Source: Halolamina pelagica (GTDB lineage Archaea > Halobacteriota > Halobacteria > Halobacteriales > Haloferacaceae). From it: a stretch of DNA of 64,000 nucleotides. Position numbers and translations under genes: made by a program. The stretch is taken from NCBI RefSeq assembly GCF_001307315.1, contig NZ_LGUC01000001.1, positions 806,001-870,000 on the forward strand. Direction: 5' to 3'. Below are positions 7,312-63,402 of the stretch, piece after piece; within the stretch, counting starts at the first letter, position 1, and every line of letters begins with the position of its first letter. The notes beneath the pieces were generated by a model that was not told where the DNA came from, did no database searches, and saw only the letters and a list, made by a program, of their open reading frames with translations.

Positions 7312-8570
7312 ATGCGACTCGACGAGTATCTCGAGTACGAGGCGGACGAGGCCGCCGAGCGACGGCGCCTCGCCGAGGAGAAGAACTACGAGATACTCGA
7401 TCACCTGGAGTCCTTCGAGAGCCGGTTCGAGGAGCACGTCACGGGCGACTCGCTGGTCGGGAGCGTGTCGCCGTCGATCTTCGTCGGCCGGTCCGACTAC
7501 CCGAAGGTCTCCACGGGGATCCTCTCGCCTGTGGGCCACGAGGAGGACGCCGGACGCTTCGAGACCAGCGGGGAGTGGTACGACGAGGGCGTGGGAATCG
7601 CGGACGTGTTCGAGCGCCGGACCAGCCTGCTGAACTCCAACCGCACGGGGGTCGGCGTCGACGTACACGACGCGTGGGACGGGTTCACCGGCGTCCAGCG
7701 CGAGATCGCGATCGCCGACCGGCCGGTCGGCGTCGAAGTCGGGCTCGACGGTCGGCCGGACGTGGACTACGACGTCTCCCGCGACGACGTGGCGACGCCG
7801 GTCGGCCCCCGAGCGACCGCTCAGTCGGCCGATCTCACCGAGAACCCACACGTCCCCGCCCCGTGGAGAAAACCCTCGAAGACGACGACTGGCAGGCCCA
7901 GGGTGCGATCAACTACCTCTACCGCCGCGGGTTCGACGTGTACGACATCAATACGATCCTCTCGGCGGGCGCGCTGGGCCAGGCCGAAAACCGGAAGCTC
8001 GTCCCGACACGGTGGTCGATCACCGCCGTCGACGACACCGTTGGCCAGTATCTCCGCGGGACGCTCCGGGGGAGCCAGAGCGTCGACAGCGTCCAAGTCT
8101 GGCACAACGAGTACCTCGGCAACAGCTTCTGGGTTGTTCTCGCCCCCGGGAAATGGGAGTACGAACTGGTCGAGATGAAGGCACCCGGGAGCATCTGGAA
8201 CCCCGATCCCGAAGCGGGGACGTACCTCGCCAGCGCCCACGAGCAGTTCGAGGGACGGACGGGGTACGTCGACGAGACCGCGGGTGCGTACTACGCCGCC
8301 CGCCTCGGCGTGCTCGAACATCTTTCGGATATCGGCCGACAGGGGAAGGCGCTCGTACTCCGCCACGTCTCCGACGACTACTGGGGCCCGGTAGGGGTTT
8401 GGCAGGTTCGTGAGGCCGTCCGGCACGCGTTCGGAGGCGAACACGGCACCGCAGAGACACTGACGGGGGCGATCAGCGAGATCGCCAGCCACCTGCCGGT
8501 CCCGGAAGCGCGACTGCGAAGAAAGTCGACGATGGCGGCGGGGCTCCAGTCGAGTCTACTGGAGTTCTGA
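7312..8570 (+). CDS. nreA: DNA repair protein NreA (COG1602), one frameshift in sequence
   Basis: The first part (7312 to about 7857) and the second (about 7855 to 8570) lie in different frames. Adding one C to the C4 run at 7854-7857 joins NPHVP to RPVEKTLEDDDW and yields 419 residues, a normal length. NreA works with PCNA in archaeal repair of alkylation-type damage. The N-terminal part has SPSIFVGRSDYPKVSTG (about residues 52-68) and the C-terminal part DDWQAQGAINYLYRRGFDVY, both typical of the family. The final residues QSSLLEF form a QxxLxxF PCNA-interacting motif at the extreme C-terminus, as known for NreA. The frameshift is almost certainly a sequencing error. Confidence 0.87.
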
Positions 8571-8576
8571 GCCGCG

Positions 8577-8866
8577 CTACTCGGTCTGGACCGGACCGCG
8601 GCCCACGATCGACTCGACGGTCTCGACGAACGTCTGCCGAGTGTCGAAGTAGCTGGTGTCCGACTCCGCCAGCACCTCCTCGAGGGAACGCGGGCCCTCG
8701 GGCGTCCGAATGGTCGCGTCACCCTCCTTCTCGACGATACGACTGCGCTCCTGTGGCCAGGTGAGTCGTGCGGCGACGCGAGCCAGGGGCGCCCCTCGAC
8801 GGTACTCCCCTCGCCGAGTTCGACCGCCGGCTCTGCCGCCTCTTCCTCGGTCTCCTCTTCGCTCAT
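8577..8866 (-). CDS. Small acidic haloarchaeal protein (DUF5789-like), one frameshift
   Basis: Start MSEEETEEEAAEP at 8866; the frame is lost at the C4 run 8792-8795 (G4 on the coding strand). Adding one G links GEGSTVEG to APLARVAARLTWPQ and gives 96 residues. The second half, RIVEKEGDATIRTPEGPRS then a helical tail, matches the haloarchaeal family I recall as DUF5789. No function is known. It converges with nreA, 6 bases between stops. Confidence 0.65.
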
Positions 8867-8960
8867 ACCCGGGACATCGCCCGTCCGGACGGTAACGCTT
8901 TCGATGGCGTCGACGGCCCGCGGCAGGATGTATTTCTACAGACATGTGTATGACGTACGG

Positions 8961-8967
8961 CTTTTTG
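8961..8967 (+). promoter_or_regulatory. Putative TATA box of the DUF7139-like gene
   Basis: CTTTTTG centred about 28 bases before ATG 8992, predicting a leaderless transcript. Confidence 0.45.
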
Positions 8968-8991
8968 TCCGTGGGGAGTATTGAGCCGTAC

Positions 8992-10088
8992 ATGACCAGT
9001 CTCTCGGAGGTGTACAAGCCCGATGCGGAGTTCCAGACCAGCCTCCGGCGACTGTACGCGGGGCTGGGCCTGTTCGCGGTCGGTGGTCTGCTGGCGATAG
9101 CCGGGGTGGTCGTAGGGGCGATCACGCCGTTCGACTCGCTGACGGCCTCCTGGGAGTGGGCGGGGATCCTCGCCGGGCTCGGCGTTCCGGCGGCGATCCT
9201 GGGTATCTTCTCCGTCCTCCCTTCCGGCCGACGCACCCGGGTCGCGGCCGTCATCGGCGCTGCGCTCTCGATCCTCGGAGTCGCGTTGTTCGTCCACGCC
9301 TACCCCTGCCAGTGGGTCGGCACGAACTGCCTCAACGGCCGGACGCTTCTGACGCTGCCGGTCGCGCTACTCTACGCGGCAGGGATCATCACCACGCTCT
9401 GGTGTCTGTTCACCGGGATCGTCAACTTCGAGTCCCGGAACAGCCCCGGCGGCACCGCTCACGTCGAAGTGACCACTCAGGGCGAGACGAAGGTGATCGA
9501 GGTGCCGACTTCGGAACTCTCGAAGTTCTCGGGCAGCATGGGCGTCCTCGGAGATACCCCGGACGTCGACCCGCCGGACAGGCCGGGTGCCGGCGGCGGG
9601 AACAGCAGCGTGGCGAGTGACGGCGGCGCGTCGACGAACACGGTCACCGACCTCGGTGGGAGTGGAGCGTTCGTTGACGAGTCGGAGATCGCCGACGCCG
9701 GCCCCAGCACCCCCTCGGCCGGGTCGGCGACGAACGAGCGGTCGAGTTCTGCCGACGCGAACGGCGGCGTCGACTCGGTCGGATCGAAGCCGCCCCGGCG
9801 CGAGAACCGTGAGTCGGCCGCCGGTCGCTCGGCGGGGCAGTCAAACAGTGCCACGGACGAGGTGAGCGAAGTGGGCCCGGGGAGCTCACCCCTGCGCGAC
9901 GACGACTGGACGCCGACCGGCGCCACCCCGATCGCGCCGAAAGCGGCCCGGATCGGGACAGCTACTGTGGCTCCTGTCGTCACTTCGAGTACGTGCAGAC
10001 CGAGCAGGGGATGCAGCCTTACTGCGCGTTCCACGAAGGACTCATGGACGATATGGACGCCTGCGACGACTACACGCCACGGCAGTAA
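8992..10088 (+). CDS. Membrane protein with C-terminal zinc-binding tail (DUF7139-like), one frameshift
   Basis: Adding one C to the C4 run at 9926-9929 restores 365 residues. The N-terminal part has four hydrophobic segments (about residues 22-45, 55-75, 82-102 and 120-145), followed by an amphipathic cytoplasmic part with strands EVTTQGETKVIEVPTSEL. A long Ser/Gly/Asp-rich low-complexity linker occupies about 185-320. The restored C-terminus has CGSC and later YCAFH and DACDDYTPR, a compact four-Cys/His zinc module lost in the uncorrected frame. I recall the membrane part as haloarchaeal DUF7139. The tethered zinc module suggests a sensing or interaction role, but that is inference. Confidence 0.7.
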
Positions 10089-12355: not shown

Positions 12356-12795
12356 TCAGAGCGATCCGCGTCGCGGGCCGCCGTCGTCGTGGCCCAGCGC
12401 CTGCTGGAGGAAGTTCATCCAGCGCTTCTGGTCGGCGGCCTCCTGTCTGGCGGCCTCGCTCTCGATGTCGCCGGCGTCGAGCTGTTCCAGCGCGTCGAGC
12501 GCGCGGTCGATCCCGATGATGCTGTTGGCGATCGCCTCCCCCTCTCGTGGCTGATCTCGCCGTCTTCGAGCAGTTCGAGGCGCTCGTTGCGCTCGCGGCG
12601 GAGGTTGCGTTTGGCCTCGTCGACGCGCTCGCGCTGCTCGGCGGGCACCGTCTCCCGGCGCTTGATCTCGAAGACGAACTGCTGGAGCTCGAGTGTCTCT
12701 CCCTGGACCTCGATCTGCTCCGGGATGTCGGCGCCGATAGTGGCGGCCTCACGTCCGACCCGCTCGAGGAGTTGCTTGCGCTTGTACTCCTTCAC
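12356..12795 (-). CDS. Haloarchaeal conserved helical protein (DUF5788-like), one frameshift
   Basis: GTG start at 12795 (VKEYKRKQLLERVG). Reading is interrupted at the C5 run 12538-12542; adding one G on the coding strand joins EDGEISHERG to EAIANSIIGIDRALD and gives 146 residues ending RRGSL. The protein is highly helical and charged, with QQFVFEIKRRETVP in the middle; I recall this as DUF5788. No function known. It lies upstream of polX on the same strand. Confidence 0.65.
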
Positions 12796-15732: not shown

Positions 15733-17150
15733 ATGACCGAGCCATCGTCGAACGTTCGGGTCCGGGGGATCTACGCCACCGCGCTCACGCGGACGCTGCT
15801 CGACGCCGGCCACACTGTCGTACAGGCCTCGCCGCCGATCCAGCGGCGCTTCGACGCCGACCTCCCCGCCGCGGACCACGACGCCGCGGTAGAGACCGGG
15901 CCGGACCGACAGGGCGTCAACGTCGCCGGCGACCCCGACGCCGTCGACGCGATCCGGGAGCTGCTCGTCGACACCGGCATCGACACGCTGGCGTGGGACG
16001 ACCCCGCCCCCGTCGGCGCGGTGTTCGACGGCCGCGTGACCGAGACGCTCGGCAGTGGCGCCGTCGTCACGCTGGGCGAGACAACGGGCTACCTCCCGTT
16101 CCGCGCCGTCGACGGCCGCGTCGACGAGGGCGACACGGTACGCGTGCAGGTGACCGAGGCCGCGGCGCCGTGGGACGACGACCGGCCGCTGCTCGACACC
16201 GGCCTGGCGGTCGAGGCCGGGCTGGCGACGCTCGTCCACGGGGGCGAGGGCGTCCGCGTGGCCGGCCGCGACGACGCCGCGGGCCGCGAACTCGCCGGGC
16301 TCACCGACCTGCTCTCGACTGCCCCGCCAGCCGGCTGGGGGCTGGAGTGGGCCCACGACGCCCGCGACGCCGAGATGGCGACGCTGGAGGACGCTCTCGA
16401 CCGCGCGAGCCAGCGAGCCACGGCGCTGGAAGCCGCCGTCGACGACGCCGGCGACCCCGAGCCGGTTCGGGCGGTCGCCAGCCCCACCGCTGGCGCGTGG
16501 ATCTGGTTCGGCCGCGAGTCCCGGTTCGCGCTGGACGAGCGTCGCCGGGAGGTGACGGCGACGATGCCCGGCCACCACCGCACCAAAGCCGGCACCACCG
16601 CCGCCAGCGCGGGCGTCGACTTCGTGGAGGCGCTCTGTGCCGACGGGCTGGGCGAGGAGTTCCCCTTCGACGTCGTCGCCGACCAGTTCGGCCCCACGAG
16701 GGGGAGACGGTCCGCATCGGCCACGGGAAGCCGGCGGGCCACCGGATCGTCCTCGGCGAGGCCGAAGTGACCGACCGCGACGGCGAGACGCTCGCGGTCG
16801 AACGCGAGATCTCCGCCGGCGGCACGTACGACGCGCTGGGGACGCCCAGAGCGGCTGGCGACATCGCTCACACGAAGTTCCGCGAGGGACGCTGGTGGTA
16901 CCCGACGACGTACCGCTCCGCCGACGGCGAGCACAAGGGCACCTACGTCAACATCTGCACGCCGGTCGAGCTGTTCCCCGACACCGTCCGCTACGTCGAC
17001 CTCCACGTCGACGTGATCAAATACCCCGACGGGACGGTCGAGCGCGTCGACGACGACGAACTCGACGCCGCCGTCGAGGCGGGCAACCTGCCGGAAGCGC
17101 TGGCGGAGAAAGCCCGTAGCGTCGCCGCGAGCATCGAACGCGCGATCTGA
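15733..17150 (+). CDS. FAU-1 family RNA-binding protein/ribonuclease (DUF402), one frameshift
   Basis: Adding one C to the C4 run at 16692-16695 joins DVVADQFGP to HEGETVRIGHG and gives 472 residues, standard for archaeal FAU-1. The N-terminal half carries an S1-like strand set (VGAVFDGRVTETLGSGAVV, about residues 95-113). The C-terminal DUF402 domain has HTKFREGRWWYPTTY, TYVNICTPVELFPD and RYVDLHVDVIKYPDG (about 380-440). FAU-1 binds AU-rich RNA and has RNase E/G-like activity in other archaea. Two intact halves flank the break, so a sequencing error is the simplest explanation. Confidence 0.83.
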
Positions 17151-24992: not shown

Positions 24993-25993
24993 TCAGTCGA
25001 CGATCGCGAGCCCACGACACGTCTGCTCGCCGACGGGCTCCGGCCAGGCAACGGCGATTTCGGCCCAAGAGTCGCCGCCGTCGTCAGTCCGATACAGCCC
25101 GTGGTTGTTCGCGGCCCACACCGTGGCCTCGTCGGCACCGCGTTCGAGCACCGCCCGGTACACCCCTCCCCGGTCGGAATCCCGCGGTCGTCGAGGCGCT
25201 CCCACGTGTCGCCCTCCCGTCGGTAAAGGTAGGACTCGCCGACGCGGTGGGCCTCCCGCGCGCTCGTCGCCGCCGAAAGGAGTACTCGCGGGGTGGGTCG
25301 ACCGCTCGAAGCCTTCTCCAGCCCGACCGCGACGCTCCAGCAGTAGGTGTGGTCGAGCCCGGCCTGGGGGTGCTGCCAGGACTCGCCGGCGTCAGTCGTC
25401 TCGGCGTAGCCGTCGCCCGCCGCGACCCACGCGTGGCCCGGCCTGTCGGGGTGGGTGGTGATGGTGTGCGTATCGAGGCGAGCGCCCGGCACGCGATCGG
25501 TCCACTCGACACCGTCCGCGCCCAGGCGTGCCCGGACGAGCGCGCCGGCCTCGACGGCGACGTGGAGCAGGTCCGGGTCGCCGGGGTCGGGCTCGATCCA
25601 CCGGACGTGGTGGGTGTCGGGTCGCGGCGGGAACGACCACTCGTCCGACGAAGGGAGGGTCGTGAGGCCGTCGAGTGGCTCGAACGTCTCGCCGGCGTCG
25701 GTGGACCGATAGACGCGACTGGGTTCGGTGCCGGCGTAGACGGTTTCGGGATCGTCGGGGGCGACCGCGATCGAGGTGACGGCGTCCTGCTCGATCCCGT
25801 CGGCGCGGGCCCACGATTCGCCGCCGTCAGTCGATCGCTGGAGGCCGTCCTCGAACGTGCCGACGAGGACGGCCCCGCCGGTCACCGCGACGCACTCGGT
25901 TCGGGAGTCGAACGGGCGCTCGCGCACCATCGACTCGCGGTCGGCGTCGACGACGAACAGGGCGTCCTCGTAGACGACGTAAGCGGTAGTCAT
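24993..25993 (-). CDS. BNR/sortilin-like beta-propeller protein, one frameshift
   Basis: Adding one base to the C4 run at 25168-25171 joins GIPTG to GGVYRAVLERGADEATV and gives 333 residues. Asp-box repeats are clear: RSTDGGESW, RSTDAGETF, ETTDAGESW and RTDDGGDSW, evenly spaced. This is a BNR/WD40-like propeller of the kind annotated as glycosyl hydrolase or YCF48-related. There is no signal peptide, so it is probably cytoplasmic. Ligand unknown. Confidence 0.78.
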
Positions 25994-26039: not shown

Positions 26040-26508
26040 TTACTGCCCGGTCGGCGTCTCGGTTTCGGTCCCCGTCCCGCTCTCGTTTGCGAGGTGGTCG
26101 TGGTGATCCTGGTGCGCGGCTTGGTCGCGGTAGGTGAGCCCGATCAGGTAGTCGGCGCCGTCGTACCGGTACACCCCACCCACGCCGTCGTCGCACTGGC
26201 GGGTGAACGTGTTCGAAATCTCCCGCCCCGTGGGGATCGACAGCCCGCGGTGGACGCGCTCGCCGTCCTCGGCATCCTTGAGTTCGTCGAGCGGGCCCCG
26301 GAGTTCGGGGATCTCGTCGACGGCTTCGGGATCGAGCCGACACTGGGTCTCGCTCTCCTCGCCGCTGGCTCGGATAACGGTCATCGACACCGGGGCTCGG
26401 CGAAGGGGTTGAGGCGGGCGCGCTCGGCGGCCGTACAGCCCGCGAGCCCCGTGGTCGCGACGGCGCCGACCGCCGCGAGCAGCCGCCGGCGTGTCGGGGC
26501 GTCGGTCA

Positions 26509-26509: not shown

Positions 26510-29544
<3,035 letters not shown>

Positions 29545-29624
29545 TCAGCGCGGGATACGGAGTCGGGAGGGTTGAACCCGTCGGTCCCGGGGTATCGCAC
29601 ACGCGGCCCCTGTCCGCAGTCCGG

Positions 29625-37718: not shown

Positions 37719-37977
37719 ATCCACGGCGAGCTCGGGGAGCGATCGCCAGCGTAGCCACTCACGGCGTCGCTGCCGGTCGTTTTCGACTCGCTCCCGCGAA
37801 TCGAGCCCTGCCGTTTGTCCGGTTTTCGGCGATCGGGTTAAGACTTTCCCAGTTTGGTTTCAGTAGTACAAACTCAATTGTCTATCGGTACGAGCAGCGG
37901 CGACGCGTCGCTACTCGGGCGCTCCGAGAAGCGTCGATCCTGGCGTGACAGCCGGCGAAAAGTAGCGGCCTGCCGTG

Positions 37978-39260: not shown

Positions 39261-39358
39261 ACCGGTTCTGTGGCCGAAGCGGCCAAGTAGGTGGTGGTTT
39301 CCCGGCTACCGAAATCGGCCGGTACAGACGTTCCCATGGCTCGGGAACTACGCTCGGG

Positions 39359-40100: not shown

Positions 40101-40172
40101 AGTCCATTGGGGTAGTGGCCAATCCTGAAGCCTTCTGGGGCTTCGACCCTGGTTCGAATCCAGGATGGACTA
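40101..40172 (+). tRNA. tRNA-Gln (anticodon CTG), one base missing in anticodon arm
   Basis: Acceptor AGTCCAT pairs with ATGGACT, discriminator A, CCA not encoded. The D arm is GGGTAGTGGCCAATCCT and the T arm is CCTGG TTCGAAT CCAGG. The anticodon stem AAGCC pairs with GGCTT, but the loop reads TTCTGG, 6 bases instead of 7. A fifth G in the run at 40137-40140 would give the normal loop TTCTGGG with CTG at positions 34-36. No intron. A short inverted repeat CCACC/GGTGG sits at 40078-40092, just upstream. Confidence 0.88.
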
Positions 40173-40251
40173 CTTCCTCGCAGTTCTCGACCGACGAGCC
40201 GTGGCGGCGTCGACGACTACCCGCCACGGACGAGTCAATCCACGACGCGAG

Positions 40252-40755: not shown

Positions 40756-43152
40756 CAGAAATCACCCAGCGAGGCCTGGCCCGCCTCCTCCCCGCGGCCG
40801 GCACGTTTCGCGTCGGCGTCGGCGGTCACGCCGTCCATCGACGGATCCTCGCGGCCGACGTTTTCGAGCACGGTCTCGGCGGTTTTCGCCCCGCGGAGCG
40901 CACCGAGGACGACCGACTTGTCGACGGTCCGGAGATCCGCCCGGCTCTCGACACCGGCCTCGAACAGCCGCCGCGCGCGCTTGCGGCCGACGCCGCGGAC
41001 GCCCGTGAGATCAAGCAGCTCCTCCCGGACGCCGTCCTCAACGCGCTTTTTCGCCTCGCGGACGGCGACGACGGTCGAGAGATCGAGTTCGCCCGCCAGC
41101 CGCTCGGCGGCGTTGAGCAGCCACTCGGCGGTGTCGACCTTGCCCCGGATGTCGCCCGGGCCGACGCCGTATCGCTCGGCGATGCGATCCTCGTCGACCT
41201 CGCTGGCCCAGTCCTCCAGCATGCGGGCGGTTTTGAGCGCGGAGAGCCACTCCTCGAACGCCACGTCGTCGTACTCCGAGGGGTGCGCCCGAGCAGTTCG
41301 GTCTCGCGCTCGAACAGCTCCTCCTCGTACGTCTCGCGGTCGCCGGACTTCAGGTAGAGCTGGTACATGTCCGGCGTGCGGGAGACGAGGTGATACAGCC
41401 CGAGCGCCGACACGTCGCCGGCGTCGTCGCCCCCCTCGACCTCTTCGCCCATCGCCTCGGCCTCGCCGTCCGCGTCGGCCAACGGGTCGTCGTCGAGCAG
41501 ATCGTTCCCGGAGACGAAGCCCGAGGACTCCGCCGGGTCGCCGTCCATCGCGCCCCGGGAGCCGTACTCCCGGCTTCCGTCGTCGCCGTCCTCGGCGTCG
41601 CGCAGGCCGTCGATGATCTCCGCAGCGCTCATCGGGTCGAGGTAGAGCCGCGAGACGGTGTGGCCGATCTCGGTCGCGGTGATCGTGTCGCCGTCGCGGT
41701 CGACGAACTCGTTGGCAGCGAGGTAGTTCAGAACCGTGTCTGTCACCGACTCCAGCTGCGCGTTCCCGGCGCTCTGGACCGCATAGAGCGTGTTGTCGAG
41801 GAACTCCAGGATCTCCTCGCGGGTGTTGGCAAAGCCGGACGCGACCGTCGCGAGCAGGTGGGTCCGCAGGGCGGGCTCGGCGGCCAGCTTCGACCGGACG
41901 GGTTCGGGCTCGCCGTCGATGTAGCGCTCGAACAGTTCCGCCTTGGTGTCGTTGTTCGAGGCGAGCAGGACCGCCTCGCCGTACGGGTCGAGGCCGGGCC
42001 GGCCCGCCCGCCCCATCATCTGGTGGACTTCGAGCGTGTCGAGTGGCTTCATACCGCCGAACTCCGGGTCGTAGCGCCGCCAGTCTCGGACGATCACCCG
42101 ACGTGACGGCGTGTTCACGCCGGCGGCGAGCGTCGGCGTCGCCGCGATCACCTTGATCAGGCGGTCACGAAACGCCTCCTCGACCAGATCGCGGTGTTCG
42201 CTGGAGAGCCCGGCGTGGTGAAACGCCGCGCCCGCTTTGACGCAGTCGGCGAGGTCGTCGCTGGTCGCGGTGTCGGACACGTCCCGGATCGCCGTCGCCA
42301 GCTCCCGGAGGTCGGCGCGTTCCGCGTCGGTGAGATGGTCACTCGTGGTGCCGCCGAGCCGGCTGGCCGCGGATTCGGCGTTCCGGCGGGAGTTGACGAA
42401 CACCAGGCTCGACCCGCCTTCGTCGAGCGTATCGTCGACCAGCGCCGGGGTCTGTTTGCCGCCGCTGTCGACCGACACCTCGCGCTGGGAGCCGTCGGCG
42501 AAGTTGATCGCGTTCCCGAAGTGGACGCCCGTCTTGAGGTCGATCGGGCGCCAGTCGGAGTCGACCAGTTCGGCGTCGAGCCAGTCGGCGATCTCGGGCG
42601 CGTTGCCGACCGTCGCCGAGAGCGCGACCGTCTGGAGGTCGTGGTTGATCCGCCGAAGTTTCGCGAGCGTCACTTCGAGCGTGGGGCCGCGCTCCCGGTC
42701 GTCGACGAGGTGGACCTCGTCGGCGACGACACAGGAGAGGTCGTCGATCCACGGCGCGCCGTTGCGCACCAGCGAGTCGACTTTCTCGCTCGTGGCGACG
42801 ACGATGTCCCGCGAGGCCAGCCACTCGCCATCGGACTCGTAGTTCCCCGTCGAGACGCCGACGGTGACGCCGTACTCCTCCCAGCGCTCGAACTCGGCCT
42901 TCTTCTCGCTTGCGAGCGCTCTGAGCGGGACGATGTACAGCGCGGTCCCCCGCGTTCGACGGCGGAGAGCATCGCGAGTTCGGCGATCAGCGTCTTCCCC
43001 GAGGCGGTGGGGACCGCGGCAACGACGTTCTCACCGTCGGCCACCCCTCGCTCGACGGCCTCGGCCTGGGGTGGGTAGAGCGCCTCGACACCCTCGTCCT
43101 CGAGATGCTCACCGACGCCCGGAGGCAGGCCCGACAGCTCCGTCGGCTTCAT
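40755..43152 (-). CDS. hel308: Ski2-like DNA helicase Hel308, two frameshifts
   Basis: Three frames join when one base is added at the C5 run 42947-42951 (RGG to [16 protein letters not shown]) and one at the G4 run 41280-41283 (LLGRTP to [15 protein letters not shown]), giving 799 residues. Motifs: Walker [18 protein letters not shown] (about 50), DEVHLVDD (about 140), [12 protein letters not shown] (about 245), [13 protein letters not shown] and [15 protein letters not shown]. The C-terminal helix-hairpin-helix [17 protein letters not shown] and the terminal QASLGDF, a PCNA-binding QxxLxxF motif, follow. Hel308 unwinds lagging-strand structures at stalled forks. Confidence 0.9.
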
Positions 43153-43236
43153 TGGGAGAGGATTGCCCGCTCTCGGGTTTAAGTTGCCGGGTCCGATGCG
43201 ACGACGGGAGCGCGCGTCGACGCCGCAAATCGACGG

Positions 43237-44630
43237 TCAGACAAGTTCGTCGGGGTCGGCGTCGGCCGGGAGGGGGACTCGTACTCGCGGTCGCCCTTCC
43301 GCTCCTCGAACTCCGCGCGGGCCTCGGCGAGCAGCTCCTCGTCGGTCAGTAGATCGTACAGCGACCCCGCGACGACTTTCCCGGCGAACAGCATCCCCGC
43401 GGTGCCGAGTTCCTTCCCGGCCGCGACAGCCTGCCAGGAGTGCGCTGGCGTCCCCGTCGGCCACGTCGCCGCACGGAACCGCCCGAGCGGGACGTTCCAG
43501 GACACGTCGCCGGCGTCAGTGGAGTAGGAGCCGACACCGCCCTCGTCGGTGGCGTCGAGGGGGTCGCCGAACATCGCCGCCTCGGCGACCTCCTCGCGGC
43601 GTTCGGGCGGCGCGCCGGCGTAGGAGGGGTCGTCGAGCGTCGCCTTCAGGTCCGCCGCGAAGGACTCCTGCTCGTCGGTGAGCGTGAACTCGGCCGCGTC
43701 CATCGTCGACCTGATCGAGTCGGCCAGCGCGTCGTTGGGAAGCACGCCGTACATGCCGCCGGTCTGGGTCACGTCGACGTCGGTGCCGGACATGAGCGCC
43801 GCGCCCTCGGCGGCGTCGCGCACGCGCTCGGAGACGCGCTCGACGGCGGCGCGGTCGGGCGCGCGGACCATCACCTCCATCGCCGCCTCCTCGGGCACGA
43901 TGTTGGCGGCCTGCCCGCCGTCGCTGACAACGTAGTGGATGCGGACCGATTCGGCGACGTGTTCACGCATGTACTCGATACCGTTCCCGAGGAGTTGGAC
44001 GCCGTCGAGGGCGCTCCGGCCCGCTTCGGGCGCGGCGGCGGCGTGGGAGCTCTCGCCCTCGAACCGCATCTCGAAGGAGTCGACGGCGAGGCAGGACCCT
44101 CGGCCGGGAGTGTTGAGCCAGTCCGGGTGCCACGAGACGACCGCGTCTACGTCGTCGAACGCGCCGGCCCGGACCATGAACACCTTGCCGGCGCCGATCT
44201 CTTCTGCCGGCGTCCCGAAGTAGACGACCGAGCCCCGGGCGTCGCCGCGCTCGATGGCGCGTTTGACCGCGATCGCGCCGGCGAGGCTGCCGACGCCGAA
44301 GAGGTTGTGGCCACAGCCGTGGCCCGGGCCACCCTCCTCGATCGGTTCACGTTCGGCTTTCGCGGCCTGGCTCATCCCCGGCAGCGCGTCGAACTCCCCC
44401 ATCGTCCCGACGACGGGGCCCTCGTCGCCGTAGCGCGCGACGAACGCCGTGTCGATGCCGGCGACGCCGGATTCGACGGTGAACCCCTCCTCGCGAAGCG
44501 CTTCTTCGAGCAGCGCGGCGGAGTCGTGTTCCTCCAGGGAGAGTTCCGGGTTCTCCCAGAGTTGCTCCGAAAGCGCCGTGAGTCGGTCGTGCTCGGCCTC
44601 GATGTCGTCGAACAGATCCTGTTTGGTCAC
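43237..44630 (-). CDS. M20-family amidohydrolase (AbgB/IAL type), C-terminal frameshift
   Basis: 464 residues once one base is added at the G5 run 43272-43276; the corrected C-terminus reads PADADPDELV, then stop at 43237. Without it the frame runs on to 43179 with non-family sequence. Metal ligands appear in TMGEFDALPGMSQ (about 83), GHGCGHNLFG (about 103), GTPAEEIGAGKVF (about 139) and SWHPDW. The closest known relatives are p-aminobenzoyl-glutamate hydrolase subunit B and amino-acid amide hydrolases. Cytoplasmic; substrate uncertain. Confidence 0.83.
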
Positions 44631-51175: not shown

Positions 51176-51909
51176 TCAGTTCGTCTCGGTCTCGCGCTCG
51201 GACTCCTCCTCGGACTCCGCGTCGGACACCCCGTCCTCCGCGGCCTCGTCGGCGGCGACCGCGTCGGGCCGGGAAGTCCAACCGGAATCGTCGCCCGACG
51301 GGGCGTCGTCGGCGTCCGCGGCGTCGTCGCCCGCCCGCTCGTCGGACTCGGCGTCCGCGGCCTCCTTGCGGGCGTTCTCGGCGCGGGCACGTTCGAGTTC
51401 GCGATCGAGGCCCCCCTCGATCGCGCCCAGCGACTCGACGGTGACGACGTTGCCGCCGCCGGGGTCGACCACCATCACCTCCTCGCCTTCGGGGATCTCG
51501 CCCTCGATCGTGCGGGCGGAGTAGTAGGGGTTGAAGCCGCCGTTGTCGATCTTGACCTCGCCCTCTCGAGGGGTGACCCGGGAGGTGACGCGGGCGGTTT
51601 GCCCCTTCAGGTCGGCCGAGTCACTCGTCTGGGGCTGTCCCTTCCCGCCGTAGAAGTCGAGTTCGCGGTAGCCGTACAGCGTGACGATCCCGATCAGGAG
51701 CACGAGTCCGGCGAGCACGAACGGCGTCGCCGCGGGGCCGAGCAGCAGGCCGACCAGCCCGGCGCCGAGCAGCGACACGCCGACGACGATGAAGTGGGCC
51801 CCCGGCGCTAACGCCTCCGCGATCGACAGCGCGATCCCTGCCACGACCAACAGCAGGGGAGCGTCTCGGGGCCAAGCAGCCCTGACTGGAGCAGCATCGT
51901 GCTGGACAT
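51176..51909 (-). CDS. NfeD-family membrane protein, one frameshift
   Basis: The start MSSTMLLQSGLLGPET (ATG 51909) joins LPLLLVVAGIALSIAEALAPG when one base is added at the G4 run 51856-51859, giving 244 residues. Two or three hydrophobic segments (about 18-35, 42-60, 64-85) precede an OB-like domain (DLKGQTARVTSRVTPREGEV; GEIPEGEEVMVVDPGGG). The last 75 residues are very acidic. NfeD proteins pair with SPFH proteins; the SPFH gene starts 73 bases downstream on the same strand. Confidence 0.83.
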
Positions 51910-52038
51910 AGACCCCACGACGTATCAACGTTGGCTCCGTGCCACAGCCATGCTCGGGCGCGAACGGTAAGAGAAGGCTTATTCGGCACGCGAGGGGAAC
52001 TCGGCGGTATGAATCAGTTCGTCCGGGAGGTGAGGTGA

Positions 52039-52908
52039 GTGCCGAGCGTGGACCTCCCCTTCGGACTTCCGGAGGTAGACTACGCCGAGTACTCGAACCG
52101 ACAGCTGGTCGCGGTCCCGCTCGTGGTGCTGGCGATTGCCCTCCTGATCATCGGCGGCGTCTGGCTCACGACTGGCGCGCCGGTCGATCTCGGGATGGAG
52201 TTCACCGGCGGCACCGAGATGCGACTCCAGGTCGACGGCCCGAACGCCGAACAACAGATCCAGGAGGCGTTCACGGCCGAGCCGGCGAGCATCCAGCCGG
52301 TCGCCGGAAGCGACATCTACCTCGTGAGCTTCGGGGCGGATGCGAACAGCGAGCAGTTGGAGACCCAAGCCGAAAACGCCGGCTTCGGCGTGGAGTCGAT
52401 CGATGCCACGTCGCCGAGCTTCGGTAGCGCGGCCCAGACCCAGGCGATCGGCGGCATCGTCATCGCCTTCGCGGGGATGAGCGTGCTCGTGTTCGCGATG
52501 TTCCGAACGTTCGTTCCCAGCATCGCCGTCGTGGTGTCGGCGTTCTCGGACGTGGTGGTGCCGCTGGCGCTGATGAACGTCCTCGGTATCCAGCTCACGC
52601 TCGGCTCGGTCGCCGCGCTGCTGATGATCATCGGGTACTCCGTCGACTCCGACATCCTGCTCAACAACCACGTGCTCCGCCGACAGGGGAGCTTCTACGA
52701 GTCGGCCTATCGCGCGATGGAGACCGGGATCACGATGACGGTGACCTCAATCGCCGCGATGACCGTGATGACGATCGTCGCGACCGCGTTCGGGATCGGG
52801 CTACTCTCCTCGATCGGGCTGATCCTCGTGTTCGGCCTCGCGACCGACCTGCTGAACACCTACATGCTCAACATGTCGCTGCTTCGCTGGTGGAAGTTCG
52901 AGGGGTGA
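52039..52908 (+). CDS. secF: Protein-export membrane protein SecF
   Basis: 289 residues, GTG start. Six hydrophobic segments are visible: about 25-45, then after the periplasmic loop about 137-158, 162-182, 188-208, 240-258 and 262-282. DLGMEFTGGTEMRLQ (about 51) is the first SecF/SecD signature, and SVDSDILLNNHVLRR (about 204) the second. SecF and SecD use the proton gradient to pull proteins through the Sec channel. In haloarchaea the order is secF then secD, as here, 7 bases apart. Confidence 0.92.
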   Translation: MPSVDLPFGLPEVDYAEYSNRQLVAVPLVVLAIALLIIGGVWLTTGAPVDLGMEFTGGTEMRLQVDGPNAEQQIQEAFTAEPASIQPVAGSDIYLVSFGADANSEQLETQAENAGFGVESIDATSPSFGSAAQTQAIGGIVIAFAGMSVLVFAMFRTFVPSIAVVVSAFSDVVVPLALMNVLGIQLTLGSVAALLMIIGYSVDSDILLNNHVLRRQGSFYESAYRAMETGITMTVTSIAAMTVMTIVATAFGIGLLSSIGLILVFGLATDLLNTYMLNMSLLRWWKFEG

Positions 52909-52915
52909 GCCGATA

Positions 52916-54524
52916 ATGGCCGACGAGGGCGGCACGTGGGCCAGCATCAAGGAGAACTGGCGAGTGGCCCTGCTCGTCGTGATCGTGCTCGCGAGCGTGT
53001 TCGCGCTGTTCTCGCCGACGCTCGCACCGAGCACCAACACGCCAGGATCGACGAGCAACGGCACGGCGGCGAACACCGGCATGACGAACCTCCAGTACGG
53101 CCTCGAACTCTCCGGCGGCACCCGGATCCAGGCGCCGCTGGTCGGCGTCCACGCGACCGGCGTCGACGTTCCCAACGGAACCGAGCGGCAGACGATCCGC
53201 CAGGAAGTCGCCGCCGGCCTCGAGAACGCGAGCGCACAGGACATCGCCGTCCGCTACCCCGGCGAGTACGGCGACACCGTCCAGCGGACGACGGTCGTCG
53301 AGGTCAGAACGGCGAACGTCACCGCCGCACAGCTCGACGCCGCGCTGAACGAGGCGGGCTATGAAGCCGACGACACGCAGGACCGCGTCTCGGAGATCAC
53401 CCAGCGGACCGCGGTGACCGTGCTGCGACAGAAGGTCAACGAGGCCGGCCTCTCCGGCGGGACCGTCCGGGTCGTCGGCGGCGACGTGATCGTCGTCGAG
53501 GTGCCCAACGCCAACCAGACCGCAGTCCGCGAGCTGATCGAGTCCCGGGGCAGGTGCTGATCCAGGCGTACCACCAGAACGAGAACGGCACGTACGTCCG
53601 GACGACGATCATGGAGTCCGACGACCTCCGGCAGGTCGGCAACGCCGAACCGCTCGAGGGCGGCCGGGGCGGCGAAGTCGGCGTCATCGTCAGGGAGGAC
53701 GCCGCCGAGGACGTCCAGCAGCGCTTCGTCGACACCGGACTCGCCCAGGAGGGCGGCACGGAGTGCCGCTACCGTGAGAACCCCAACGGGACCGAACCGT
53801 GCATCCTGCTCGTGCAGGACGGCCAGGTCCTGAACGCCTTCGGCGTCGAAGGGGCCCCAACGGCCTCGCCAAGCCGATGCGTGATGGGACGTGGGCGGAC
53901 AACCCGCAGTTCCGCCTGACGACCGGGAACCTCTCGACGGCCCAGGAGGTCGCGATCAACCTCCGCGCCGGCGCGCTCCCGACCGAGCTCGACCTCGACC
54001 AGAACTCGATGCTGTACGTCGACCCCTCGCAGTCCGACCGGTTCAAGACCGACTCGTTGATCGCGGGGATCGCCGCGGTGCTCGCCGTGAGCGGCGTGGT
54101 GTTCGCTCGCTACCGGCGCGTCGAGGTCGCGGGGCCGATGATCGTCACCGCGCTCTCGGAGGTCGTGATCCTGATGGGGGCGGCCGCGGCGATCGGCTAT
54201 CCGATCGATCTCTCGGTGATCGCCGGCTTCGTCGCCGCGATCGGGACCGGGGTGGACGACCTGATCATCATCGCCGACGAGGTGATGAGCGAGGGCGAGG
54301 TGAGCAGCCAGCGCGTGTTCCAGAGCCGCTTCCGCAAGGCGTTCTGGGTCATCGGCGCCGCGGCGGCGACGACGATCGTCGCGCTCTCGCCGTTGGCGGT
54401 GCTCTCGCTCGGCCAGCTCCGCGGGTTCGCGATCTTCACCATCCTCGGCGTGCTCGTCGGGGTGCTGGTCACCCGTCCCGCGTACGGCGACATCCTCCGG
54501 TCGCTGCTGACCGGAGACCACTGA
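52916..54524 (+). CDS. secD: Protein-export membrane protein SecD, two frameshifts
   Basis: Adding one G at 53547-53550 (ELIESRG to QVLIQAYH) and one at 53851-53854 (AFGVEG to GPNGLAKPMR) gives 536 residues. One N-terminal membrane helix (about 16-35) leads to YGLELSGGTRIQAPL (about 61) and the large extracellular domain with P1-type repeats. Five membrane segments follow (about 370-530), including GTGVDDLIIIADEVMSE, the SecD signature. secD is important for haloarchaeal export and not expected to be broken. Confidence 0.9.
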
Positions 54525-56759: not shown

Positions 56760-57202
56760 GGCTGGAGTCGGGGCGGAACGGGTAACTACCTTGCCCTTCC
56801 CCGACGGCATCGCTGGGTGGGGAAGACGTGCGTGGTGGAGCGTATTTCTGGGGAGGTGAGAATGGAGGGCCCGTGCGCCAGCGGGGGCGTACACAGGGGG
56901 CGACCCTGCGTGACTTCGCACAGCCACGGCATCGGTTTCGTGATCGGCGCACGGCGGCGCCGATCGGTCACGGGCTATCAATCAGCTTCCGCACAGCCAC
57001 GGCATCGGTTCCGTGATCGGCGCACGGAGGCGCCGAGGGGTTACGTACTGTCAATCGGCTTCCGCACAGCCACGGCATCAGTTCCGTGATCGGCGCACGG
57101 CGGCGCCGAGGGTTACGTACTGTCAATCGGCTTCCGCACAGCCACGGCATCAGTTCCGTGATCGGCGCACGGAGGCGCCGATCGGTCACGTGCCGTGGCT
57201 GG
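56760..57202. other. Noncoding tract holding a tandem repeat
   Basis: No convincing reading frame. The frames that stay open are repetitive and Arg/Pro-rich because they read the 72-base repeat. Positions 56760-56913 have no obvious structure apart from short G runs. Confidence 0.6.
56914..57198. repeat. Four tandem copies of a 72-73-base structured repeat
   Basis: Copies begin at 56914, 56986, 57059 and 57131. Each starts CTTCCGCACAGCCACGGCAT (copy 1 lacks one C) and contains GTGATCGGCGCACGG followed by GGCGCCGA. GATCGGCGC pairs with GCGCCGATC in copies 1 and 4 (9 bp, 6-base loop), and 7 bp remain in copies 2 and 3. Copy 4 also closes an outer stem, AGCCACGGCA with TGCCGTGGCT. Copies 2 and 3 end with TTACGTACTGTCAATCGG; copies 1 and 4 end differently (CGATCGGTCACG). 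Confidence 0.85.
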
Positions 57203-57511: not shown

Positions 57512-57924
57512 CGCATGCTCCCACCACGACTCGAACGTGCTGGGGACCAGCTCCCGTGGGAGTTGGCCCACAACGTGAACAGACGGCTCAGGAAAGTGCA
57601 GGTTCGCACCGACCGGGCCGCCGTGAACCGATTCACGCTGCGAGCCGACCGGAACGAACCTGCGGGCGTACGATGGAAATCCCGACATACCCGAACCGGT
57701 CCGCTCCGGTAAACCCAAGCGCAGAGCTATTGAGCCCTGTGAGCATTGGGAGGGATGTCGGGAGGCGCATCGTTCGTCCTGTCAGTTCCTCTATTCCGGT
57801 CCCACTTAACTCTACTCCGAGGTTGTGAAACCGTGTCACGGGAGTAAGAGACACACCGACGGTCGGTCGGGGCCGGCCGTGCTTCGAACCGAAATCATTT
57901 GTTCGACCGCTCCGACTCGCGAGT
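57512..57924. other. AT-richer intergenic tract, no gene recognised
   Basis: The part from about 57720 to 57860 is clearly less GC-rich than the surroundings and holds GTGTC/GACAC pairs around 57834-57855. I compared it with RNase P and SRP RNA signatures from memory and found no match. It could be a decayed element, an unknown RNA, or long regulatory sequence for the genes on either side. Confidence 0.4.
57891..57900 (+). promoter_or_regulatory. Putative TATA box of the amidohydrolase gene
   Basis: GAAATCATTT centred about 28 bases before ATG 57925, matching a leaderless promoter. Confidence 0.5.
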
Positions 57925-59120: not shown

Positions 59121-60399
59121 GTGCAGGTCCCCACCCTCACCAGTCCCGCGATCGACGACGAGGACCCGAGCGTCCCGGTCGTCGTCGGCGCCGTGATCGC
59201 CGGGGTGTTCTTCGGCGGCGTGGGCGGCGGTGTCGCGTTCCCGACACTCCCGGCGCTGGGGACGGTGTTGGGGATCTCCTCGTTCGTCGTCGGGATGATC
59301 CTCTCGGTCAACCGCTTCACGCGGCTGCTGTTGAACACGCCGGCGGGGCAAGTGCTCGACCGCCTCGGCACGCGCCGACCGATGCTGATCGGCCTCGCCG
59401 TGCAGGGGCTGGTGCCGTTCGGCTACGTGGTCGCGCTCGATCCGGGCGCGATCCCCCTCTCCAGCGCCGCGATCTTCTTCCTCTCGCGGGCGCTGTGGGG
59501 GTCGGCTCCGCGTTCGTCTTCGTCGGCGCGTTCACGACCGTCACCCACGTCACGACCGCGCAGAACCGCGGGAAGTGGGTGGGGTACATGCGCGGCGGCC
59601 AGAGCCTCGGCTTCCCCGCCGGGCTCATCCTCGGCGGGATCTTGACCGATCTGTACGGCTACAGCGAGGCGTTCGCCACGGCCGGCGCGGCGGGGCTGTT
59701 CGCGGCGGTCGTCGCGTTCGTCGTCCTGCCGAACGTCGAGGGGAGCGCGTCGGCGACGACGCGGCTGCGGGACCTCCCGGCGGTCGTCCGCGCCGACGCC
59801 CGGGTGCTCGGCATCGGCGCCACTAACCTCGCGGTGCGGTTCCTCTACGCCGGCATCCTCCTCTCGACGGTCGTGCTGTACACGAACGAGTACAACATCG
59901 CCCTCGGCGCGCTGGCGTCGACGGGCGTCAGCGGGATCGTGATGGCGATCTCCGTGCTCGCGATGTCGGTGACGACGCTCGTGGTCGGTCGGCTCTCGGA
60001 TACGCTCCCCTCGCGGACGTACACCGTGATCCCGGCGCTGGGGCTGCTCGCGGCCGGCTTCGCGCTGCTCGCGTTCGTCCCAGCGTCGCGAGCACGGTCG
60101 TCGGCGTCGCGCTCGTGGGGATCGGCGTCGGGGGCACGGGCCCCCCACTGATGGCCTACCTCGGCGACATCGCGCCCGGTGGCGACGTGGGGAAACTCGG
60201 CGGCGTCTACAACGTGTTCGGCGATCTGGGCTCGACGATCGGCCCGCTCGTGGCGCTGCCGGTCGCCTCCGTCGTCGGCATGCGGCTCGAGTACCTCGTC
60301 TGCGCCGGGATCGCCGTGCTGACGGCGGCGATGGTGCTCGCGACGCTCGACGGCGACCCCGAGACGCTCCGGGCGCCGGAGGTCGTGCCGAACGACTAA
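59121..60399 (+). CDS. Major facilitator superfamily transporter, two frameshifts
   Basis: GTG start. One G added at 59497-59501 (RALWG to VGSAFVFVGAF) and one C at 60079-60081 (LAFVP to SVASTVVGVALVG) give 426 residues with about twelve hydrophobic segments. The loop-2 MFS signature is GQVLDRLGTRRPM (about 73) and its counterpart in the second half is VGRLSDTLPSRTYTV. Likely a proton-driven importer or exporter of small molecules. The second break is in a run of only three C. Confidence 0.82.
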
Positions 60400-60441
60400 C
60401 GAGATTTTTTACCACACGCCGCCCCCAGTTCCACCAGAGCG

Positions 60442-61872
60442 ATGAGCGACCCCGTCCCCGCGATGGCCGACCGCGCGAGCGCCTGCGCCGAGCGCGTGCT
60501 GGCTGCCGACTCCGTCGTGCTCGCCTCCCACATCGACGCCGACGGCCTCACCAGCGGCGCCATCGCCGCCACCGCGCTGGAGCGGGCGGGGATCCCCTTC
60601 GAGACCACGTTCGAGAAGCAGTTGGACGCCGCCGCGATCGACCGCATCGCCGCCACCGACCACGAGGTCGCGCTGTTTACGGACTTCGGCAGCGGCCAGC
60701 TCGACGAGATCGTCCCCCACCACCGCGCCGGCGAGTTCGACGCCGTCGTCGCCGACCACCACCAGCCGGCGACCGGGGAGGACGGCGAGGAGCCGCCGGA
60801 GATCGAGCACCACCTCAACCCGCTTCTGTTCGGCATCGACGGCGCCGCGGAACTCTCCGGCGCGGGGGCGACGTACGTGCTCGCCCGCGCGATGGAGCGT
60901 GACGGCGTCGACAACCGCGACCTCGCGGCGCTGGCGGTGGTCGGCGCCGTCGGGGACATGCAGGACACCGACGGCGGCCTGCGGGGGGCGAACGAGGGGG
61001 TCGTCGCCGAGGGCGTCGACGCCGGCGTGATCGAGGAAGTGACGGACATCTCGCTGTACGGTCGCCAGACCCGCCCACTCCCGAAGCTGCTCGAGTACGC
61101 CAGCGAGCTCCGAATCCCCGGGATCTCCGGCGACGAACAGGGGTCGATCCGGTTCCTCTCGGAGTTGGACGTGGACCTGAAAGTCGACGGCGACTGGCGG
61201 CGCTGGGTGGATCTCTCCTTCGAGGAGCGCCAGACCGTCGCCAGCGCGCTGATGCGCCACGCGATCTCGCGGGGCGTCCCCCGGAGCGCGTCAACGGCGT
61301 GACGACGACGACGTACACGCTCTCCGCGGAGGAGGTCGGCACCGAACTCCGGGACGTGAGCGAGTTCTCGACCGTGCTGAACGCGACCGCTCGCTACGAA
61401 CGGGCGGACGTGGGGCTGGCGGTCTGTCTGGGCTACCGCGACGAGGCACTCGAGGAGGCTCGGACGCTCCTGCGCACCCATCGGCGGAACCTCTCGGAGG
61501 GGCTGGAGTGGGTGAAGACGGAGGGCGTCGAGCAGGCGGAGCATCTCCAGTGGTTCGACGCGGGCACGCGGATCCGCGAGACCATCGTCGGCATCATCGC
61601 CGGGATGGCGCTGGGCGCGGAGGGGTACGACGCGACCAGCCGATCATCGCGTTCGCCCAGGAGAACGACGAAGAGCTCAAAGTGTCCGGGCGGGGGAGTG
61701 GGTTCCTCGTCAGCGACGGGCTGGATCTCTCTGTCGTGATGTCCGAGGCCGCCGCGGCGGTCGGGGCGGCGGCGGTGGCCACGACGTGGCGGCGGGGGCG
61801 ACCATCCCCCGAGAGAAACGGGACGCGTTCGTGGAAGAGGCGGACCGAATCGTCGGCGAACAGCTGGGCTAG
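60442..61872 (+). CDS. RecJ-like DHH phosphoesterase, three frameshifts
   Basis: Corrections are one C at 61278-61282 (RGVP to PERVNGV), one base near 61640 (DATS to PIIAFAQEND) and one G at 61763-61766 (AVG to GGGGGHDVAAG); the product then has 477 residues. Motifs: SHIDADGLTSGAIAAT (about 30), FTDFGSGQLDEI (about 75), VVADHHQP (DHH) and the DHHA1 motif GGGGHDVAAGATIPREK (about 445). Archaeal DHH proteins of this type are single-strand exonucleases, some of them CMG-associated (GAN/RecJ-like). The stop overlaps the HalX regulator stop at CTAG. Confidence 0.83.
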
Positions 61873-62483
61873 GCGCCGATGTCTTCGAACAGCCGTCGGT
61901 AATCCTGCGTGTCGAACTGCTCGGTGATGCGCTCGAGTTCGGCGTCGAGCTCCGCGAGCTCCGCGGTCAGCTGCTGATACTTCTCGTTCCGTTCGAGCGC
62001 CTCGCGGGGTTTCTCGGCCTCCAGCGTCGCCCGCTTCGAGGCCAGCGCCGCGGTTCGCTGGAGGTGGTCGTCGTACTGGCTTCGGGTGCCGAGGCGCTCG
62101 ACGGCGTCGAGGAGCTCGTTCTGGGAGAGCGGCTTGAGCACGTAGAGGTCGAACCCCATCTCGACGATGTCGAAGTCGGGTTCAACCGCGGTCACCATCC
62201 CGACGCGGATGTCGAGTTCCCGCTCACGAATCGTCGCCAGCAGCTCCTCCCCGTGGCCGTCCGGGAGTCGTCGATCCAGGAGCGCGATGTCGTACGCCGC
62301 GGATAGCCGGTCGGCGCCGTCGCCGACGCTGTTTGCGACGTCGACGTCGTACCCCGCCGACTCGACGGTGGTCTGGTAGAGGTCGGCCACGTCGGGCTCG
62401 TCCTCGACGATCAACACCCGGTTCGTGTCTGCCCGCTCGTCGGTGCGACCTGTCTCCCCCGGATCGGGCCCCGCCTCGGTCAT
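61869..62483 (-). CDS. HalX-domain response regulator
   Basis: 204 residues. The receiver domain (about 22-135) shows VLIVEDEPDVADLY, IALLDRRLPDGHGEELL with the phospho-acceptor Asp, MVTAVEPDFD and VLKPLSQNEL. The C-terminal HalX domain (about 140-204) is a helical coiled coil (YDDHLQRTAALASKRATLEAEK; YQQLTAELAELDAELERIT). No histidine kinase is adjacent. ATG 62483 is chosen from family start. Confidence 0.9.
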   Translation of the reverse strand: MTEAGPDPGETGRTDERADTNRVLIVEDEPDVADLYQTTVESAGYDVDVANSVGDGADRLSAAYDIALLDRRLPDGHGEELLATIRERELDIRVGMVTAVEPDFDIVEMGFDLYVLKPLSQNELLDAVERLGTRSQYDDHLQRTAALASKRATLEAEKPREALERNEKYQQLTAELAELDAELERITEQFDTQDYRRLFEDIGA

Positions 62484-62674
62484 AGTGGCAACAGTTCGGC
62501 TGCCAACAGTTAACAGTACCGTCACGACCGCATCGTCCCCACGCAGTGCCGGATTCTCCGGCGTTTCCCGCTGTGACAGCGTGATTCGTCTGCTGCGTGT
62601 CCCGCAACGAGCCGTCGGAACCGTGACAGACCCGGTGGGCTTAATTCCCTCCGCGACGCTACGTCACGCTATCC

Positions 62675-63402
62675 ATGGTCGACGTTACCGAGACCGGGGT
62701 CGACGGTCTCGACGCGATTCTCAACGGCGGTATCGTCGATAACTCGACGGTGCTGGTCAGCGGCAACCCCGGGACCGGCAAGAGCATCTTCGGCATCCAG
62801 TACCTCTACAACGGGGTGAGGGAGTTCGACGAACGAGGGATCTACATCTCTTTCGAGGAGAACGCCGAGGACATCCGGCAGGCCGCGGAGTCGGTCGGGT
62901 TCGAGGAGTGGGGCGAACTAGTCGACAACGGCGACATCAAGGTGTACGACAAGTCGACGATGCTCCGGGAGGAGGACTTCAACACCGCGATCGACCGCCT
63001 CCTGCAGGACTTCGCCGGCACCACGTACGACCGGCTGGTGCTCGACTCCCTGACGATGTTCAGCCTCTTCTTCGACGACGAGACCGAGAACCGCACGTAC
63101 CTGCTGAAGTTCTCGGACATCCTCAAGAAGAACGGGCTCACCTCGCTGTTGATCAACGAACAGGGGGCGGTGTTCCCCGAAACCGAGATCGGCCTGGAGA
63201 ACTTCCTCACGGACGGCAACATCTACTTCATCCAGACGCCGACGGACAACGGCGTGAACCGCTACATCTGGGTCGCGAAGATGCGCAAACAGGACATCAA
63301 CACCGACATCTTCCCCATGGAGATCGGCGAGGGGGGATCACCGTCTACGAGCGGGCCGGCGGCTTCTCGATGATGGGCAGCGAGGAGCAGCCGGGGTTCT
63401 AG
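62675..63402 (+). CDS. RAD55/KaiC-family ATPase, one frameshift near the end
   Basis: Adding one G to the G6 run at 63331-63336 changes the tail from SPSTSG to ITVYERAGGFSMMGSEEQPGF and gives 242 residues. Walker A SGNPGTGKSIFG (about 29), the catalytic Glu pair in YISFEENAED (about 60) and Walker B DRLVLDSLTMFS (about 125) place it in the RecA/KaiC single-domain group, common in haloarchaea and often next to signalling genes. The role here is probably as a signalling ATPase. Its stop overlaps the next gene at CTAG. Confidence 0.85.

What the first reader, a model, noticed from the sequence alone, without database searches (positions are those of the whole stretch)
7854..63336. Twenty-five one-base deletions, nearly all in G or C runs, across 18 protein genes and one tRNA
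I traced each break codon by codon. The positions are about 7854, 8792, 9926, 12538, 16692, 25168, 26392, 34168-34176, 37204, 37254, 38485, 38934, 40137 (tRNA), 41280, 42947, 43272, 51856, 53547, 53851, 59497, 60079, 61278, 61640, 61763 and 63331. Every case is fixed by adding a single base. Essential genes are hit (nrdA, secD, purO), while equally long genes (uvrA, polX, pus10, nrdB, M32, permease) are clean. One-directional errors in homopolymers point to sequencing under-calls, not to gene decay or programmed frameshifting. Annotation from the raw sequence would wrongly report many pseudogenes.
Basis: seen in the sequence. Interest (0 to 1): 0.7.

Follow-up and report, generated by a model that had tools for sequence, protein, structure and literature searches.

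The report
Sequencing errors in a salt-loving archaeon
Many genes in this archaeal genome look broken by one missing letter, but the evidence points to sequencing that misread the length of runs of G or C, not to biology, so the apparent dead genes should not be believed.

Summary
A frameshift-aware comparison with syntenic DNA of four same-genus relatives finds 23 of the 24 protein breaks as one-base deletions called by at least two relatives; the 24th (43272) rests on one relative plus local alignment. The tRNA break is confirmed, and three more deletions were missed (52902, 56770, 57542). The same census gives each relative 0-1 such deletions per 80 kb. Four other 20-kb stretches of this genome hold 19 deletions and 0 insertions; 12 relatives' stretches hold 2 and 0. 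At matched flanks, G/C runs of 5 read one short in 10 of 63 comparisons and runs of 6 in 5 of 6; between relatives 0 of 174 and 3 of 25. Runs of 3-4 are not shortened by one more often than in controls. The two 23S rRNA genes disagree at three G5/G4 sites that are uniform in five relatives' copies. Divergence beyond the breaks is normal, so the genes are not decaying. This is systematic under-calling of long G/C runs, as in unpolished long-read assemblies, genome-wide, perhaps about a thousand sites (inference). Not a biological feature.

The parts
7309..8567 (+). NreA DNA repair gene with one break at the C run 7854-7857
   Evidence: 3 of 3 covering relatives; NCBIfam NreA_Halo on the G003 copy
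8580..8914 (-). DUF5789 gene, break at 8792-8795
   Evidence: 2 of 2; Pfam
8971..10085 (+). DUF7139/DUF7140 gene, break at 9926-9929
   Evidence: 3 of 3; Pfam
12359..12795 (-). DUF5788 gene, break at 12538-12542
   Evidence: 3 of 3; Pfam
15733..17147 (+). DUF402-domain gene, break at 16692-16695
   Evidence: 4 of 4; Pfam
24996..25993 (-). BNR/sortilin-like repeat gene, break at 25168-25171
   Evidence: 4 of 4; Pfam
26043..26497 (-). gene without family match, break at 26392-26395
   Evidence: 2 of 2; no family
33812..34257 (-). 4HBT thioesterase gene, break at 34172-34176
   Evidence: 3 of 3; Pfam
35249..37727 (-). nrdA (ribonucleotide reductase large subunit), breaks at 37204-37207 and 37254-37257
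   Evidence: 3 of 3 at each; NCBIfam
37981..38636 (-). metallophosphoesterase gene, break at 38485-38488
   Evidence: 4 of 4
38677..39290 (-). purO-type IMP cyclohydrolase gene, break at 38934-38938 (upper end of the gene not settled; relatives' models run on to 39529)
   Evidence: 4 of 4; Pfam IMP_cyclohyd
40101..40173 (+). tRNA-Gln(CTG) gene; G run 40137-40140 one shorter than in 4 of 4 relatives
40758..43152 (-). archaeal DEAD-box (Ski2/Hel308-like) helicase gene, breaks at 41280-41283 and 42947-42951
   Evidence: 4 of 4 at each; Pfam
43182..44630 (-). gene with peptidase M20 dimerisation domain, break at 43272-43276 near the 3' end
   Evidence: 1 of 4; 3 of 4; local alignment against 4 relatives; Pfam
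51179..51921 (-). gene without Pfam match, break at 51856-51859
   Evidence: 4 of 4
52904..54521 (+). SecD/SecF-family gene (reader: secD), breaks at 53547-53550 and within 53851-53858
   Evidence: 4 of 4 at each; Pfam
56770..56773 (.). extra deletion between genes, upstream of pus10: G run one shorter than in 3 of 4 relatives in pairwise alignment
57542..57545 (.). extra deletion, coding status unclear: G run shorter than in the four relatives aligned
   Evidence: 3 of 4; mixed cluster: 5 deletion and 1 insertion calls
59121..60396 (+). MFS transporter gene, breaks at 59497-59501 and 60079-60081 (the only reader site in a run of three)
   Evidence: 3 of 3 at each; Pfam
60400..61869 (+). DHH/DHHA1-domain gene, breaks at 61278-61282, 61622-61625 (reader: 61640) and 61763-61766
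   Evidence: 4 of 4 at each; Pfam
62675..63399 (+). KaiC-like ATPase gene, break at 63331-63336
   Evidence: 4 of 4; Pfam

Best explanation
The breaks are base-calling or consensus errors. The assembly of this haloarchaeon came from a method that under-reports the length of G and C runs once they reach five bases, as unpolished long-read (nanopore-type) assemblies do. Each affected run lost one base in the file, not in the cell. The genes, the tRNA and the 23S rRNA are intact in the organism. Shown here: one-base loss, direction, run-length dependence, occurrence in all stretches examined, presence in rRNA and tRNA, near absence from relatives, normal selection on the genes. Inferred: that the reads or the consensus are at fault, and which kind of platform it was.
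For: Window census: 23 deletion sites and 1 insertion site called in one direction by at least two relatives; the four relatives as controls together gave 2 deletions and 4 insertions. Four further own stretches (80 kb): 19 deletions, 0 insertions; 12 relatives' stretches: 2 deletions, 0 insertions. Matched-flank G/C runs one base short: length 3, 4 of 1169 (controls 18 of 3263); length 4, 1 of 312 (5 of 983); length 5, 10 of 63 (0 of 174); length 6, 5 of 6 (3 of 25). G/C runs of six or more: 7 in the 64-kb window and 8 in 80 kb elsewhere in this genome, against 34, 27, 22 and 27 per 80 kb in G001, G003, G005 and G002. The two own 23S copies differ by 4 substitutions and 3 gaps, each gap G4 against G5, two in one copy and one in the other, at sites uniform in five relatives' copies. 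Differences from relatives at codon positions 1/2/3 beyond the breaks are 0.075/0.064/0.272, in clean genes 0.075/0.065/0.257. Completeness 79.93% in 3 contigs against 91-99% in six same-genus genomes. Such errors are described for nanopore and other long-read assemblies (passages of PMC9262707, PMC8011154 and PMC12007338).
Against: No raw reads were seen and the platform is unknown. One window site (60079) and three of 19 outside sites have no G/C run of four or more within 8 bases, so run length does not explain every case. Larger shortenings also occur in both own and control comparisons: two short at length 4 in 7 of 312 (controls 8 of 983) and three short at length 5 in 3 of 63 (1 of 174); these were not followed up. 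Counts of runs of exactly five are not clearly lower than in relatives. A/T runs of five or more are not clearly fewer (29 in 144 kb of this genome; 15, 21, 23 and 19 per 80 kb in relatives), and only 6 A/T runs of five could be matched, 6 of 6 unchanged. One paper found more A/T than G/C deletions in a long-read assembly (PMC12007338), and another lists many insertions besides deletions in some nanopore assemblies (PMC8011154), so a pure G/C deletion pattern is not the only form of this error.
Confidence: 0.97

Rival explanations
1. True recent mutations: the strain is a mutator (slippage in G/C runs) or its genes are decaying.
For: Slippage also favours long runs (recalled); the divergence test only shows that any break would have to be recent.
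Against: Slippage should add as well as remove bases (recalled), yet the outside stretches show 19 deletions and 0 insertions. Both 23S copies would have to be damaged at different sites that are uniform in relatives, along with nrdA, a SecD/SecF gene and an IMP cyclohydrolase. About 0.3-0.4 breaks per kb across the genome is not compatible with growth (inference).
Confidence: 0.015
2. Programmed ribosomal frameshifting or transcriptional slippage at G/C runs restores the frames.
For: Long runs can be slippery (recalled).
Against: At the 23 consistently called sites every covering relative has the unbroken frame, often without any run there. By eye the alignments show no shared signal beyond the run; no motif search was run. 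tRNA, rRNA and intergenic sites cannot be explained this way.
Confidence: 0.01
3. The window stretch alone is misassembled or degenerate.
For: The finding was made in one window.
Against: Deletions occur in 4 of 4 other stretches and in both 23S genes; gene order is shared with relatives over most of the window.
Confidence: 0.005

Closest known systems
Homopolymer indel errors of long-read-only microbial assemblies (PMC9262707, PMC8011154, PMC12007338; passages seen)
   Same: Small deletions in homopolymers, frameshifted gene calls, excess apparent pseudogenes, visible by comparison with relatives
   Different: Here only G/C runs are seen to be affected, with a sharp onset at five; platform unknown
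Gene decay / pseudogene accumulation
   Same: Frames broken by single-base deletions
   Different: No relaxed divergence after the breaks, 23S rRNA and core genes hit, no insertions among the outside sites
Programmed frameshifting at slippery runs
   Same: A run of one base at most breaks
   Different: Break not present in relatives; also in tRNA, rRNA and intergenic DNA

Membership tests
Homopolymer under-call artefact | Errors are one-base losses, hardly ever gains | tested here: met
   Window 23 deletion sites to 1 insertion site, which lies where relatives' gene models run into a divergent gene; outside 19 to 0
Homopolymer under-call artefact | Rate rises with run length | tested here: met
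   One short at length 3: 4 of 1169; 4: 1 of 312; 5: 10 of 63; 6: 5 of 6; controls 18 of 3263, 5 of 983, 0 of 174, 3 of 25
Homopolymer under-call artefact | Spread over the assembly regardless of function | tested here: met
   4 of 4 other stretches of the main contig, both 23S copies, a tRNA, an intergenic site; the two smaller contigs were not examined
Homopolymer under-call artefact | Absent from independently assembled relatives | tested here: met
   Four relatives 0-1 consistent deletions each in the window region, 2 in 12 further stretches
Homopolymer under-call artefact | Raw or accurate reads show the longer run | not testable with these tools
   No reads held
Gene decay | Relaxed constraint beyond the break | tested here: not met
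   Codon-position divergence beyond the breaks matches that of clean genes
Programmed frameshifting | Break and signal conserved in relatives | tested here: not met
   Every covering relative is unbroken at the 23 consistently called sites; many lack the run

The most novel reading that the evidence does not exclude
A minority of the breaks, most likely those without a long run (such as 60079), are real in the cell and are tolerated through slippage during transcription or translation in a haloarchaeon.
Probability: 0.02. Interest if true: 0.5.

Novelty: not a real feature. Interest (0 to 1): 0.08.

Why it matters
Any analysis of this genome that counts pseudogenes, missing essential genes, gene content or completeness will be wrong by an amount that can now be estimated: roughly one false break per 2.3-3.5 kb (inference from 28 in the 64-kb window and 19 in 65.8 kb of coding DNA outside). 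The matched-flank run test and the comparison of rRNA copies need only an assembly and relatives, and could flag other such genomes.

Tried and rejected
Pairwise DNA gap calling alone was too noisy at about 85% identity. It gave 17 deletions and 6 insertions for the window with support from at least two relatives, and 6 and 9 (G001), 14 and 14 (G002), 5 and 9 (G003), 1 and 8 (G005) for the controls; taken alone it would not have shown a clear excess. It was replaced by the protein-to-DNA census, to which three DNA-supported sites were added after local alignment.

Rows dropped from the counts: window clusters called by a single relative (17725, 19624, 31920, 32565, 39367), and mixed-direction clusters (window 32519 and 57541, the latter kept only through DNA alignment; G001 two, G002 one, G003 one, G005 one). 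The insertion cluster at 39300 is counted as 1 insertion. All clusters, single-relative ones included, number 32 in the window and 9, 5, 8 and 10 in G001, G002, G003 and G005. Single-relative and mixed clusters were not printed or counted. Alignments under 45% identity or 50 codons were dropped in both.

A first 23S alignment mixed strands and is discarded; one search replaces it. The query, which I took for uvrA, was a + strand frame opposite the real - strand genes at 45866-48748; the real uvrA is 26512-29589. One search was DNA-based and served only to find the syntenic place; the protein scan is of little use beyond pointing to haloarchaea. A DNA search of the plasmid collection with the tRNA found nothing. 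Rfam found nothing for 57000-58000. Paper searches were made; no paper on this genome was looked for, since its name is not known.
Full report
What the window is. It is bases 806001-870000 of the main contig (2.61 Mb) of a 2.97-Mb, 3-contig genome with 79.93% estimated completeness. Six same-genus genomes have 91-99%. A relative's copy of one window gene passes the cut-off of a haloarchaeal NreA model. In one search, 21 of the 22 matches that cover more than half the query bear haloarchaeal names and the 22nd is an unplaced euryarchaeote; the query there was a frame opposite the real genes, so this counts only as a pointer. Base composition is 68.7% G+C.

Checking the observation. I fetched syntenic DNA of four same-genus genomes (G001, G002, G003, G005). 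They are collinear with most of the window at 73-92% DNA identity in the listed pieces; in those pieces G005 begins at 12861, G002 at 4781, and G001 has nothing between about 33.8 and 38.0 kb. Genes of the relatives were called by open frame and codon-position G+C, and their proteins aligned to the window with a program that allows frame changes. 43272 is called by one of four there; pairwise DNA alignment shows it against three of four and the local alignment against all four. In the tRNA, 4 of 4 relatives have one more G. The 24 sites lie in 18 genes, as stated.

Controls. The same census of each relative against the other three gave, with two or more supporting relatives in one direction, 0 deletions and 1 insertion (G001), 0 and 0 (G002), 1 and 1 (G003), 1 and 2 (G005); the window gave 23 and 1. 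Mixed clusters number 2 in the window and 5 in the four relatives together. The one window insertion (39300) lies where relatives' gene models run into a divergent gene.

Outside the window. Four other 20-kb stretches of the main contig gave 1, 3, 7 and 8 deletions, 19 in 65.8 kb of covered coding DNA, and no insertion. Of the relatives' 14 stretches, 12 had enough references and gave 2 deletions and no insertion in 186.8 kb of covered coding DNA. One own stretch had only two relatives to compare, so its seven deletions rest on two relatives each.

Dependence on runs. 26 of 28 window sites and 16 of 19 outside sites have a G/C run of four or more within 8 bases, against 12.3% of random window positions. 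Where seven flanking bases on each side are identical, G/C runs of 3 and 4 read one short in 4 of 1169 and 1 of 312 comparisons, runs of 5 in 10 of 63, and runs of 6 in 5 of 6; among relatives the numbers are 18 of 3263, 5 of 983, 0 of 174 and 3 of 25. A place compared with several relatives counts more than once. Larger shortenings are in the same table: two short at length 4 in 7 of 312 (controls 8 of 983), three short at length 5 in 3 of 63 (1 of 174), two short at length 6 in 1 of 6; I did not follow these up. G/C runs of six or more number 7 in the 64-kb window and 8 in the 80 kb outside, against 34 (G001), 27 (G003), 22 (G005) and 27 (G002) per 80 kb; runs of exactly five are not clearly fewer. 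A/T runs of five or more are not clearly fewer either (29 in 144 kb; relatives 15-23 per 80 kb), but few could be matched.

The rRNA test. The genome has two 23S genes (C1:478005-480913 and C1:2368563-2371472). They differ by four substitutions and three gaps. Each gap is four against five G, at sites where all five relatives' copies have five; one copy lacks two of these bases, the other lacks the third. One further base, not in a long run, is absent from both own copies and present in the five others; as both agree, I take it as natural. The two 16S copies are identical. Damage at different uniform sites in both 23S copies is hard to accept as biology and is what chance under-calling of G5 predicts.

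Selection. In the hit genes, differences from relatives at codon positions 1, 2 and 3 are 0.091/0.079/0.277 before the first break and 0.075/0.064/0.272 after it; in clean genes 0.075/0.065/0.257. The genes are under normal purifying selection past the break, so any real break would have to be very recent.

Additional sites. 52902 (end of the gene 52039-52905), 56770 (between genes) and 57542 (coding status unclear; no Rfam match) show four G against five or more.

Interpretation. The pattern is that of homopolymer under-calling in a long-read-type assembly without adequate polishing. Of three papers I saw passages: consensus indels in homopolymers that often cause frameshift errors in gene calling (PMC9262707); systematic nanopore indels in homopolymers and excess pseudogenes after read polishing, though with many insertions in some assemblies (PMC8011154); and deletion errors most often after four to five equal bases, though with more A/T than G/C cases in that genome (PMC12007338). 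The platform here is not known. Extrapolated, some 860-1,300 such sites may exist in this genome (inference from one per 3.5 kb outside, and one per 2.3 kb in the window).

Verdict. Observation confirmed, interpretation supported, nothing biological to explain; the value is as a warning on this assembly.

Noticed in passing
window 57206-57716: A small - strand gene without Pfam match (called at 57206-57571) and DNA upstream of it are shared with relatives; relatives' models disagree on strand and extent around 57542. Rfam finds nothing there. Could be a conserved leader or an undescribed small gene.
   Followed up: partly
window 40101-40173: ARAGORN reports this tRNA with a four-base anticodon, which I read as a result of the shortened anticodon loop of a tRNA-Gln(CTG).
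   Followed up: yes
L018:7405 and L018:7685 (G003): An insertion and a deletion about 280 bases apart in one gene of relative G003 against three relatives: a frame-swapped segment that may be real or an error there.
   Followed up: no
L096 and L100 (own 16S copies): Both 16S copies carry one extra T after column 66 of the alignment relative to the G003 and G005 copies; shared by both copies, so probably natural.
   Followed up: no
window 45866-48748: Very long open frames opposite the real genes (for example 974 codons on the + strand) are conserved enough to mislead protein searches in this G+C-rich genome; I was misled by one.
   Followed up: yes
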